In this document: positions 1,375 to 12,628 of the stretch, in pieces
Layout of the letters: every line of letters begins with the position of its first letter
Numbering within the stretch: the first letter of the stretch is position 1
Assembly (NCBI GenBank): GCA_029564595.1
Contig: JAKQPS010000136.1
Coordinates: 1 to 64,000, forward strand
Direction of reading: 5' to 3'
DNA length: 64,000 nt
Source of the DNA: a bacterium
Lineage (GTDB): Bacteria; UBP15; UBA6099
Position numbers and translations under genes: made by a program
The notes under the pieces: generated by a model
Seen by the model: only the letters and a program-made list of their open reading frames with translations
Told to the model about the DNA's origin: nothing
The model's database searches: none

Positions 1375-1413
1375 GCGCTCATAGCTCAGATGGATAGAGC
1401 AACGGACTTCTAA
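1375..1413 (+). repeat. attL: left 39-bp tRNA-Arg half
   Basis: Identical over 39 bp to the first 39 nt of the intact tRNA-Arg(TCT) at 12590. It covers the acceptor 5' strand, D-arm, anticodon 5' stem and most of the anticodon loop, and then diverges after the loop TAA. It is presumably what remains of the original host tRNA 5' half after integration, now separated from its 3' half. Confidence 0.9.
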
Positions 1414-1605
1414 GGCTTAAAAGCGATATTCAAATATTCCAATAATCGAAGCAATTATTAAGTTGTGAAGCGGTTTTTTTTATTTGTAGACATAACCGCG
1501 AATCATGGTTTATCATGGTTTATCAGGGAGATAAATACACGTTTTAAACACACGCGCCGATTTTTTTTGTGGCAGGCGTGAACAACTTTTTAGGGTGGTG
1601 TTGGC
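1414..1605. repeat. Left-end non-coding segment with tandem 10-mers
   Basis: This 190-bp AT-rich stretch lies between attL and the first element gene. It holds a tandem 10-bp repeat, ATCATGGTTT, at 1502-1511 and 1512-1521, followed by a partial third unit. An inverted pair GCGGTT/AACCGC sits at 1470-1475 and 1494-1499. Repeats close to an attachment core are the usual form of integrase or excisionase arm sites, so that is the favoured reading. The first gene's promoter must also lie here, but no clear -35/-10 pair was found. Confidence 0.45.
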
Positions 1606-3141
1606 ATGAAACAAATGGACTATGACTTTCGAGATTATGAGGCCGAGGCCGACATTTTCAAGCGGCTTGATATTCTTGATTCTATCAAAAAAAGCGAGTT
1701 GGCGAAAATCGAAACCGAGCTTCGGAAACAACTTTCCGAGGTTGATAGAAGTTTAGATGATGCGGACAAACGCGCGGAGAAAGCAAAACATTTCAGAGCG
1801 ACTCAAGTGCAAATTACTGAGCTTAACGCGGTATTGCTTGAAAAGAAAAGAGAATGCGCAAAAGAGATTAGGGACGGTATTGACAATAGAAGTTTGTCAG
1901 AAGCGATGCTGGAGTCCGCACGAAATAAACTGATTGCCGCGATAGTAAACGACATTCGACAAGATGGAGCGCGCGTATTGCTAAAAAATCGAAATGCCGC
2001 GCAAATTGAGATGATACCGACTTCGCTTGAGCTTGTGCAGGATGATTATGAATATTATGCAAATTGTCGGGCGCGCTGGGCCGAAATCCGCGACGATGTT
2101 TTGTGCGGTTCTTGTCAAATGTTGTTTTTACTAGGTTATAATATTGTCAATCGCGAAAGAGTAAACATCGAGAACAACGAGATGTCCCGAAATTGTCGGC
2201 AAATGATACCCGATGCCATTGTCTTAAAAACCGATTTGTTGACTCAAGAACAGAGGAATAGCCTTGCGTCAGAAATACAGCAGCAGATTGACCGATTCGA
2301 CGGCGACGCTATCAATGATTTGGAGAAGCTTTCAAAATCGTTCGGCTCACTGCTCGATAAATTAAATTATTCAGAGGATGAACTTGAAAAACTTTTCATT
2401 GAGATTGCATCATGTTCAACTGACATCGCTAAAAAACGCTTCGCTCAAAGAATCGAGCAGATTGAGCGCCAACGGCAACGCTCATTAGAGCGCATTGAAC
2501 AAAACTTAAAGCGGCGGCCTACAGAAACGGCTCATGCGGATATTGAGCGAGACAGGGCGAACGCGCAGGCGGACAGACAGATTAAGCGTCAGCGGGAAAT
2601 CTTCGATGATGAAATAGCGCGCATTGAATTAAACACAAGCGGAGCAATGGCGGCGTTGACGGATAACCCGCGAATTGCCAATATGTTAGATATAATTGTG
2701 GGCCGTGACAAAGATAAGAGACAATTACTGATTCTCTATTTGATTGAGGCCGTCAGCAAATTTCAAAACAAGGATGTTGAAAAACTTCTTGGTATTAATA
2801 ATGTTAAAAGCTATTTTTTTAAAATATTAGAAAATGTTAGAAACAATAATGAGTCAAAGAAAAAAGACATTTTAGAACATCCTGAGCTATTAGAATTTTT
2901 CGATAGGCCTATTGCCGATATCGGGATTGAAAGAGTGATTGGTGAATGTAATTTGCATGACCTTATAAATATCGCGAAACAACACGACGATAACAAGGCG
3001 GTTGAATATTTGAGGGAGCATCTGGAAAGCTCACTCGCGAAAGATTCCGACATTAGAAAAAAAGTATTCGGAAAACGTCCAGCGAGTGCTACAGAAACGA
3101 TAGCGAGAATAAAGACTTATTGGAAATATCTTAACCATTGA
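1606..3141 (+). CDS. Coiled-coil protein of unknown function (element left-end cargo)
   Basis: Encodes 511 aa with no family that I recognise. It is highly charged and helical, with heptad-like stretches near residues 20-90 and 225-330 (rich in E, K, R, Q) and no signal peptide or membrane helix. The start ATG follows a GGGTGG-like ribosome site. It is more AT-rich than neighbouring chromosomal genes and than the terminase genes of the same element, suggesting separate acquisition. Its position, first inside attL and separated from the replication genes by a 120-bp gap, is where satellites and prophages often carry accessory genes such as phage-interference or defence functions. That role is inference from position only. 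Confidence 0.6.
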   Translation: MKQMDYDFRDYEAEADIFKRLDILDSIKKSELAKIETELRKQLSEVDRSLDDADKRAEKAKHFRATQVQITELNAVLLEKKRECAKEIRDGIDNRSLSEAMLESARNKLIAAIVNDIRQDGARVLLKNRNAAQIEMIPTSLELVQDDYEYYANCRARWAEIRDDVLCGSCQMLFLLGYNIVNRERVNIENNEMSRNCRQMIPDAIVLKTDLLTQEQRNSLASEIQQQIDRFDGDAINDLEKLSKSFGSLLDKLNYSEDELEKLFIEIASCSTDIAKKRFAQRIEQIERQRQRSLERIEQNLKRRPTETAHADIERDRANAQADRQIKRQREIFDDEIARIELNTSGAMAALTDNPRIANMLDIIVGRDKDKRQLLILYLIEAVSKFQNKDVEKLLGINNVKSYFFKILENVRNNNESKKKDILEHPELLEFFDRPIADIGIERVIGECNLHDLINIAKQHDDNKAVEYLREHLESSLAKDSDIRKKVFGKRPASATETIARIKTYWKYLNH

Positions 3142-3263
3142 GGCGTTTTTTAGGCGCGATATAACTATTTTAAAAACCCCGTAAAAATCCGGCTTAAACC
3201 GAACTCTTCTCTAGTATAACGGATGGATGGCGAAACATTTTTTCATCCGAGAGGGGCGGTTTT

Positions 3264-3452
3264 ATGGACGGACGCGAATTAAAAGCCAGCATTATCCGGC
3301 GCGGCTTGCGGCTCTGGGATGTTTCGGCTTATACCCAAATGCCGTATAGCAAATTATCCGCGATTTGCAACAACAGGCAAGACGCGACGCCAACGGAACT
3401 GGCGCGAATCAACGCGGCGATTGAGACACTGGCGGGAGAGCGCGAGAGATGA
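3264..3452 (+). CDS. Small XRE/Cro-like helix-turn-helix regulator
   Basis: 62-aa protein consisting of little more than one HTH-type unit: a first helix (LKASIIRRGLRLWDVS), then a turn and a recognition-like helix (MPYSKLSAICNNRQ), then a third helix. It is probably a DNA-binding repressor or Cro-like switch for the element. The start is preceded by GAGAGGGGCGG. Upstream, at 3165-3263, there is a TAGTATAAC -10-like element and a small inverted pair GGATG/CATCC that could be an operator. The 3' end overlaps the next ATG by 4 bp, indicating translational coupling. Confidence 0.6.
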   Translation: MDGRELKASIIRRGLRLWDVSAYTQMPYSKLSAICNNRQDATPTELARINAAIETLAGERER

Positions 3453-11143: not shown

Positions 11144-11223
11144 TGGGTAAACAAGTTGGCGTCAAAGGCACTGCTTTTTTTGGCCGTGTTTCCGTTACAA
11201 CGTCTTTGACGATTGTTTACCCA
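11144..11223. repeat. Long interrupted inverted repeat upstream of integrase
   Basis: TGGGTAAACAA at 11144-11154 and CGTCAAAG at 11160-11167 recur in reverse complement at 11213-11223 and 11202-11209. The arms face each other across a 34-bp T-rich centre. It lies in the 190-bp gap just before the integrase gene, where an operator for autoregulation, paired arm-type integrase sites or a stable RNA hairpin would be expected. Confidence 0.6.
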
Positions 11224-11267
11224 GCGGGAACCGGCCTTTTTATATTAAACGAAAGGGGAATCAGCAA

Positions 11268-12557
11268 ATGACAGATGAAAAGAACGCGGCGAAGCGAGGG
11301 CGCAAGGCAGGCTCCGAATCATCGGGAAGCTATGAGGCGCGAGGCGGCGGCGACGGGCTTTATAAGCGTTGCGATTGCGAATCATGGCGGCGTTGTAAAC
11401 ATTCATGGTGGATAACCGCCCATGTCGGCGGCGTTTACATCCGGGAAAGCGCGCATACCAACAACAAGACGATTGCAACCGAGATATTGAACACGCGCAA
11501 GGCCGACGCTCTCCGGGGCGCGGTCGGAATCAAGGGCGAAAGCAAGACGCGGTTTTTCGACTTGTGCTCGAAGTATCTGGACGCGACGCGGGATGAAAAA
11601 CGCTCACACGTTCGGGACTGTCAGTCCGTTGACACCATGAAAGCGTATTTTGGCAACCGGCGATTGAACGACATGGCGGGCAATGATTTACTTGTGCGCG
11701 GCTACATCAGGGCGCGCATGGCCGGAGAAATCGAGGCGAGCGGAAAGCAACGGCGACCAGTGACGCGAACGACAGTAAACCGCGACCTTGCCTTGCTGAA
11801 AACGATGTTCAACAAGGGCGTGGAGTGGGGACTTTGCGCGGGCGACAATCCAGTGAAGCGCGGAGCAATCGACCAACGAGCCGAATCAGAGGCGAAGCGG
11901 TTTGTTTTCCTTGAACCCGACGAAGTGACGGCTTATCTTGAAGCGGCGCGGAGCATCCCTCAATATTATCCGGTTGCGGCGACGGCGATTTATACGGGCA
12001 TGAGAAAATCTGAAATATTAGGGCTGACATGGGACAGGGTTGACTTGAACAATCGGACGATATATTTGGAGCGGACAAAAGGCGGCAAGCGGCGAGAGGT
12101 GAAAGCGCCGGAAAAGTTGACAGATATTTTTAAGGAATTAGAATCTATGAAGTCCGGCGGCCATGTTTTCATCAACAGGCTGAATAAACCTTATGAGGAC
12201 ATCAGGAAGTCACACGAAAGGGCGCTGGAAGCATCGGGGATAGAGCGTCGGCGTCTCGGACAATTCGACGCCATAAGCGACCCAGCGGAGAGAGCGGCGG
12301 CAATCAAGCGGAACCGCATCACGTTTCATACGCTCCGGCACACGTTCGGGACGTTGCTTGCGAAAGAGTGCAGAGACTTGAACATCGTCAAAAAGGCAAT
12401 GGGACACGCGAACATAGTCACAACCGAGAGATATAGTCATGTGTTGCCGGACGCGCACAGGGAAGCGGTCGAGGCTCTTTCACAGAGTTTGAATAATACC
12501 AAAATAAACACAGTAGTCGATTTTAGAGGGATGTCATCGAGTGAGGCGAGAGCATGA
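11268..12557 (+). CDS. int: Tyrosine recombinase/integrase
   Basis: 429-aa site-specific integrase that catalyses insertion and excision of the element at tRNA-Arg. An N-terminal basic, zinc-like region (CDCESWRRCKHSWW) is followed by a SAM-like core-binding domain and the catalytic domain: first Arg in TGMRKSEILGL (about 246), HTLRHTFG (about 353-360), GHANIVTTERYSH with the nucleophilic Tyr near 388. Good ribosome site GAAAGGGG. The gene ends 33 bp before the right attachment repeat, the normal place for an integrase acting on its own att site. Confidence 0.95.
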   Translation: MTDEKNAAKRGRKAGSESSGSYEARGGGDGLYKRCDCESWRRCKHSWWITAHVGGVYIRESAHTNNKTIATEILNTRKADALRGAVGIKGESKTRFFDLCSKYLDATRDEKRSHVRDCQSVDTMKAYFGNRRLNDMAGNDLLVRGYIRARMAGEIEASGKQRRPVTRTTVNRDLALLKTMFNKGVEWGLCAGDNPVKRGAIDQRAESEAKRFVFLEPDEVTAYLEAARSIPQYYPVAATAIYTGMRKSEILGLTWDRVDLNNRTIYLERTKGGKRREVKAPEKLTDIFKELESMKSGGHVFINRLNKPYEDIRKSHERALEASGIERRRLGQFDAISDPAERAAAIKRNRITFHTLRHTFGTLLAKECRDLNIVKKAMGHANIVTTERYSHVLPDAHREAVEALSQSLNNTKINTVVDFRGMSSSEARA

Positions 12558-12589
12558 AAGCCTCATTGATAAAGGAATATTTTGAGAAT

Positions 12590-12628
12590 GCGCTCATAGC
12601 TCAGATGGATAGAGCAACGGACTTCTAA
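12590..12628 (+). repeat. attR: right 39-bp repeat
   Basis: Right copy of the 39-bp core, identical to 1375-1413, forming the 5' half of the intact tRNA-Arg. Crossover occurred somewhere inside it, most likely in the anticodon stem-loop symmetry region. Confidence 0.9.

What the first reader, a model, noticed from the sequence alone, without database searches (positions are those of the whole stretch)
1375..12628. 11-kb candidate phage satellite with its own origin, initiator, loader and terminase but no particle genes
The sequence shows int, an Xis/AlpA-like protein, an O-like initiator with iterons, a DnaC-like ATPase and TerS/TerL-like genes in one compact plus-strand block between perfect att repeats. 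Portal, protease, capsid, tail and lysis genes are all absent. Known satellites (PICI, P4, PLE) share the int/reg/rep layout. PICIs usually carry TerS alone, and capsid-forming PICIs carry TerL together with capsid genes. TerL without capsid genes therefore does not fit a class I know and may be a new satellite type in a poorly known host.
Basis: partly seen in the sequence, partly recalled or inferred. Interest (0 to 1): 0.75.

Follow-up and report, generated by a model that had tools for sequence, protein, structure and literature searches.

The report
Capsidless mobile element with packaging motor
An 11-kb integrated mobile element in a poorly known bacterium carries its own integration, DNA-replication and DNA-packaging-motor genes but none for a virus particle, so it is either an unusual phage satellite that must borrow a particle or a phage that recently lost its particle genes.

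Summary
Between perfect 39-bp copies of the 5' half of tRNA-Arg(TCT) lies an 11,215-bp plus-strand element with integrase, AlpA/Xis-like protein, lambda-O-like initiator with four iterons, DnaC-like loader, weak TerS, clear TerL, two ORFans closed by a strong terminator, and an AT-rich GIY-YIG/zinc-ribbon gene. No capsid, portal, protease, tail or lysis family matched. Three same-genus genomes show the empty site. The host genome has phage modules elsewhere, including an apparently full contractile-tail prophage, so a helper is conceivable; its TerL is of another family. No sister element was found in IMG/VR, GTDB genomes, phages or plasmids. TerL relatives sit beside portal/capsid genes, several on compact 12-13-kb contigs; genome G141 has a capsidless TerS-TerL remnant that looks like a deleted prophage. 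The closest integrases (same family) sit at tRNA-Arg beside tape-measure genes. The satellite reading is plausible but not separated from a clean deletion derivative. Best reading: a satellite-like, particle-less element bringing its own complete terminase (about 0.5); rival: deleted prophage (about 0.4). Known satellites carry TerS alone, no terminase, or TerL with capsid genes, so it would be a new variant.

The parts
1375..1413 (+). attL: 39-bp copy of the 5' half of tRNA-Arg(TCT)
   Evidence: exact repeat; homology of relatives' left flank stops at 1413
1606..3141 (+). ORF1, 511 aa, predicted mostly helical, ORFan, GC 0.41; possible cargo
   Evidence: no convincing Pfam/PHROG/PADLOC/NCBIfam match; fold low confidence pLDDT 42.5; GC
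3264..3452 (+). small HTH_31-like regulator (weak)
   Evidence: Pfam HTH_31 E 0.007, below cut-off
3449..3649 (+). AlpA/Xis-like HTH_17 protein
   Evidence: HTH_17 9.4e-11; excisionase phrog_66 2.4e-8
3646..4455 (+). lambda O-like replication initiator
   Evidence: Phage_rep_O 2.3e-8, phrog_277 4.3e-13
3944..4037 (+). four iterons (core TACCGGAAACCG, 23-25-bp spacing) inside the initiator gene: likely origin
4472..5335 (+). DnaC-like helicase loader
   Evidence: phrog_50 3.1e-35
5498..6547 (+). TerS candidate, P27-like C-terminus, long N-terminal part without matches
   Evidence: Terminase_4 1.1e-4, phrog_83 1.1e-4, sm_term_P27 5.7e-5, below curated cut-offs
6522..7967 (+). TerL: ATPase and nuclease motifs kept; Walker A variant PRDWDKT; DE Walker B; Asp281, Asp287, Asp429 kept
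   Evidence: phrog_9 2e-30; alignments
8029..8538 (+). ORF8, 169 aa, ORFan; start chosen by a GAGG ribosome-binding site
   Evidence: no family; fold pLDDT 48
8535..9149 (+). ORF9, 204 aa, coiled-coil-like ORFan overlapping ORF8 by 4 bp
   Evidence: no convincing family
9226..9262 (+). strong intrinsic terminator closing the rep-ter operon
   Evidence: fold -26.7 kcal/mol, z -4.7
9687..11078 (+). AT-rich (GC 0.36) zinc-ribbon + T5orf172/MUG113 (GIY-YIG) protein: accessory gene
11268..12557 (+). tyrosine integrase directly upstream of the target tRNA
   Evidence: PF00589 2.2e-28, phrog_1 3.1e-59
12590..12628 (+). attR: 39-bp repeat, 5' half of the restored tRNA-Arg
12589..12665 (+). intact tRNA-Arg(TCT), the integration target

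Best explanation
A satellite-like integrative element. Integrase with the AlpA/Xis-like protein excises the 11.2-kb circle at the 39-bp tRNA-Arg repeat (inferred from anatomy and the empty sites). The O-like initiator binds the iterons within its own gene and the DnaC-like protein loads the host helicase, so the element replicates itself (inferred from families). TerS and TerL then recognise and cut the element's DNA and drive it into proheads made by a co-resident or infecting helper phage; the element brings the whole motor rather than only a redirecting TerS (inferred, not shown). ORF8/ORF9, at the end of the same operon, may adapt the helper portal or capsid (speculation). ORF1 and the GIY-YIG gene are accessory cargo.
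For: Precise att repeat and three empty sites; integration, excision, replication and packaging genes with no decay; compact order with a 26-bp TerS/TerL overlap, a 4-bp ORF8/ORF9 overlap and a strong terminator right after ORF9; TerL catalytic residues largely kept; size and layout match satellites, 7-20 kb with integrase, regulation and replication but no structural genes (PMC13376191 abstract); accessory genes near int and between the ter genes and the end, as in SaPIs/PICIs (PMC13376191); the genome holds other phage modules: a contractile-tail prophage with TerL, portal, sheath, tape measure and baseplate on C173 and a tail cluster on C117.
Against: Single copy; no sister element anywhere searched, so no proof of transmission in this form. 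The resident contractile phage's TerL is another family (phrog_2), so the element's motor may not fit its portal. O/DnaC/TerL are standard phage genes. Nearest integrases lie beside tape-measure genes. Walker A has Asp in place of Gly/Ser before the Lys. No capsid-remodelling gene is recognisable.
Confidence: 0.5

Rival explanations
1. A temperate phage that lost its portal-capsid-tail-lysis block by deletion between TerL and int: a defective prophage that keeps early and packaging genes and no longer moves, or moves only by chance.
For: The closest integrases, in same-family G004, sit at tRNA-Arg(TCG) in the same geometry beside tape-measure proteins. TerL relatives in viral contigs lie next to capsid/portal genes. 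A capsidless TerS-TerL remnant exists in G141 with the same ABC-ATPase cassette that in viral contig L127 precedes TerL and a portal-like ORF. Defective prophages are common and are proposed satellite precursors (PMC11389934).
Against: No pseudogene, gene remnant or truncated ORF at a junction; the operon ends in a strong terminator; the early region is far shorter than in ordinary temperate phages, with no recognisable CI-type repressor, recombination or lysis genes; G004-type integrases are only 41-42% identical and none of the element's other genes is found there.
Confidence: 0.4
2. The element encodes an unrecognised particle: ORF1, ORF8 or ORF9 supplies a novel capsid or capsid-remodelling protein.
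For: Three ORFans, two of them directly downstream of TerL, where the capsid and portal genes stand in the compact TerL relatives.
Against: ORF8 and ORF9 are short and match no head family; single-sequence folds of ORF1 and ORF8 are low confidence and mostly helical. No portal-sized candidate except helical ORF1.
Confidence: 0.06
3. A misassembly or binning error that joins unrelated fragments.
For: Sequence 12671-12841 right of the tRNA is not found next to the tRNA in relatives, so the right flank is rearranged or misjoined.
Against: Left flank through attL matches three same-genus genomes; the right flank from 12842 matches two; both att copies are perfect and the tRNA is intact.
Confidence: 0.04

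Closest known systems
PICI / SaPI (phage-inducible chromosomal islands)
   Same: Size, integrase, AlpA-type regulator, own replication module, TerS, accessory genes next to int and past the ter gene.
   Different: Carries TerL as well; integrase co-oriented with everything else and at the far end; lambda O/DnaC-type replication with iterons; no known helper or remodelling genes.
Capsid-forming PICI (cf-PICI) and the Streptomyces satellites MulchRoom/MiniFlayer
   Same: TerS and TerL together on a small element.
   Different: Those encode capsid, portal and connector (protease and HNH too in cf-PICIs; PMC10690885); none is detectable here.
Compact int-rep-TerS-TerL-capsid-portal contigs found here (IMG/VR L126, L128, L129)
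   Same: Nearest TerL clade (PRGHSKT-type Walker A), 12-13 kb, integrase, HTH regulator (L126, L128), replication gene (L126, L128), TerS/TerL order.
   Different: They carry capsid, portal and MuF-type genes after TerL; only TerL is detectably homologous (25-32% identity); completeness of these contigs unknown.
Temperate phage / defective prophage
   Same: O/DnaC replication, TerS/TerL, tRNA-targeting integrase.
   Different: No particle, lysis or recognisable CI-type repressor genes; no decay.
P4, PLE, PICMI satellites
   Same: Integrated, particle-less, small.
   Different: P4 is packaged by the helper's terminase (PMC10690885); TerS/TerL and O/DnaC genes are not their reported layout (own knowledge for PLE and PICMI); different hosts.

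Membership tests
Phage satellite (general) | Integrated element with att repeats, integrase, regulation and replication, no structural genes | tested here: met
Phage satellite (general) | Mobilised in particles of a helper phage | not testable with these tools
   Needs induction or virion DNA; candidate helper prophage present on G000:C173
PICI | Integrase, AlpA-type regulator, own replication, TerS (P27-type) | tested here: inconclusive
   int, AlpA and replication met; TerS weak and below curated cut-offs
PICI | Packaging genes limited to TerS or terminase redirection, helper supplies TerL (PMC10690885) | tested here: not met
   full-length TerL present
cf-PICI | Encodes capsid, protease, portal and connectors besides TerS/TerL | tested here: not met
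   no such family in any ORF
P4-like | P4-type replication and capsid genes, packaged by helper terminase | tested here: not met
   O/DnaC-type replication, own TerL, no P4 family hit
Defective prophage | Remnants, truncated genes or a deletion scar | tested here: inconclusive
   none seen, but a clean deletion leaves none and ORF8/ORF9 cannot be placed
Defective prophage | A full-length relative with particle genes between the same ter and int genes | tested here: inconclusive
   Int relative beside tape measure in G004, but no relative of the element's TerL or loader there

The most novel reading that the evidence does not exclude
A satellite class that carries its own replication origin and the complete terminase (TerS and TerL) but no capsid genes, and so imposes its own packaging motor on a helper's proheads, in a deeply branching, nearly unsampled bacterial lineage.
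Probability: 0.4. Interest if true: 0.7.

Novelty: new variant of a known kind. Interest (0 to 1): 0.45.

Why it matters
Known satellites redirect a helper's motor with their own TerS, use the helper's terminase, or bring motor and capsid together. An element bringing motor and origin but no shell would show that the motor-portal interface is loose enough for a foreign TerL to dock, and would be an intermediate between prophages, capsid-forming satellites and TerS-only satellites, bearing directly on how satellites arise.

Tried and rejected
Looked for sister elements with TerL, DnaC, TerS, RepO, ORF1, ORF9 and integrase in various of IMG/VR, GTDB genomes, sampled whole genomes, phages and plasmids: no copy of the element. 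Rejected G141's TerS-TerL as a sister element: it lies beside a ParB/ABC-ATPase phage cassette with no integrase, flanked by chromosomal genes. Rejected G003's three TerL loci: different TerL type in MuF/portal prophages. The lack of Pfam portal (PF04860) and HK97 capsid (PF05065) matches in G000 does not mean no phage: a G003 portal query found one on C173. No meaningful shared nucleotide sequence between the element and the candidate helper loci, so no cos/pac lead. Structures of ORF1 and ORF8 too poor to search. L. lactis bIL310/bIL312 as a possible precedent could not be checked. The host's name could not be established; the same-family genome G004 corresponds to MAG 'bacterium isolate RA.bin91'.

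Full report
What is there. The window (G000 contig C11, positions 1-64000) has a perfect 39-bp direct repeat at 1375-1413 and 12590-12628. The right copy is the 5' half of tRNA-Arg(TCT), 12589-12665. In G001, G002 and G003, genomes of the same genus, the sequence matching the window's left flank runs to exactly 1413 and continues through an intact tRNA. That is the empty site, and the element is 1414-12628, 11,215 bp. The right flank is less clean: 12671-12841 is not next to the tRNA in relatives, and from 12842 on the sequence matches G001 and G002 contigs that lack the tRNA. A rearrangement or an assembly join lies there.

Genes, all on the plus strand: ORF1 (1606-3141), weak HTH_31 (3264-3452), AlpA/Xis-like (3449-3649), lambda O-like initiator (3646-4455), DnaC-like loader (4472-5335), TerS candidate (5498-6547), TerL (6522-7967), ORF8 (8029-8538), ORF9 (8535-9149), zinc-ribbon/GIY-YIG protein (9687-11078), integrase (11268-12557). 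Four iterons with core TACCGGAAACCG lie at 3944-4037, 23-25 bp apart. A strong terminator (z -4.7) follows ORF9. GC is mosaic: ORF1 0.41, GIY-YIG gene 0.36, ter genes and int 0.54-0.57, flanking host genes 0.59-0.62. No capsid, portal, protease, tail or lysis family matches.

TerL. It belongs to phrog_9 (2e-30). Aligned with relatives, the Walker A Lys-Thr, Walker B Asp-Glu and nuclease Asp281, Asp287 and Asp429 are kept; the residue before the Walker A lysine is Asp, where relatives have Ser or Gly. It looks intact with one unusual motif; activity is untested.

Relatives. No database searched has a second copy of the element. TerL relatives at 25-32% identity sit beside capsid or portal genes in the viral contigs I annotated, several of them compact integrase-replication-TerS-TerL-capsid-portal contigs of 12-13 kb (L126, L128, L129). 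Whether those contigs are complete satellites is unknown (no terminal repeats). L130, a 12.5-kb region next to a tRNA-Leu, has integrase, D5 helicase, TerS, TerL and protease but no capsid or portal that I recognised. In G141, TerS-TerL stands alone after a ParB/ABC-ATPase cassette, and a similar ATPase precedes TerL and a portal-like ORF in viral contig L127; this looks like a deletion remnant and is a caution. The closest integrases are in same-family G004 (41-42%), one abutting a tRNA-Arg(TCG), with tape-measure genes next to two of them.

Helper. G000 has an apparently complete contractile-tail prophage on C173 (TerL of phrog_2, portal, sheath, tape measure, baseplate) and a tail cluster on C117. 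No DNA similarity links them to the element.

Reading. The element has what is needed to excise, replicate and package, and nothing recognisable to build a particle. Either it borrows particles (a satellite with its own full terminase) or it is a freshly deleted prophage. Intact genes, tight operon, terminator and lack of remnants favour the first; lack of any second copy, phage-type replication genes and the integrase's tail-gene company favour the second. I put 0.5 and 0.4. The held literature describes satellites with TerS alone, with no terminase, or with TerL plus capsid genes (PMC10690885; PMC11389934; PMC13376191); I found none with TerL and no capsid, but the library is incomplete.

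Noticed in passing
L118 (G000:C117), L120/L122 (G003:C30), L121 (G004:C113): A tail gene cluster conserved in order in three species of the family (95% identical over 12.3 kb between G000 and G003), bounded by chromosomal genes where visible; the G003 copy has a major head protein and a protease-like ORF but no recognised terminase or portal on its contig. Could be a gene-transfer-agent-like locus with split modules.
   Followed up: partly
L116/L117/L124 (G000:C173): Apparently complete contractile-tail prophage (TerL, portal, sheath, tape measure, baseplate, a large recombinase-like ORF), related to four loci in G003 (portal query).
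   Followed up: partly
L100 (G005:C29), portal about 7540-9393 and capsid 10120-11640: Portal and capsid genes of one prophage each have a single in-frame TGA, in the capsid at a spot I believe is usually glycine; mutation, assembly error or recoding not resolved.
   Followed up: partly
window 47618-50896: 23S and 5S rRNA genes without a 16S gene in the window: unlinked rRNA operon or assembly break.
   Followed up: no
window 1-144 and 60248-61713: Sequences repeated elsewhere in the genome or its relatives (contig start repeated in C35 and C149; the second block recurs in G001 and G003 loci): possible mobile or intergenic repeats.
   Followed up: no
L075, L081, L083: This integrase family lies directly upstream of (or overlapping) the 5' end of its tRNA, in the same orientation, at different tRNAs (Arg, Tyr, Lys); in the window the att repeat is the 5' half of the tRNA.
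   Followed up: partly
L130 (IMGVR_UViG_2830604426): 12.5-kb region with integrase next to a tRNA-Leu, D5 helicase, TerS, TerL and protease but no recognised capsid or portal: possible second example of a terminase-bearing, capsid-poor element.
   Followed up: partly
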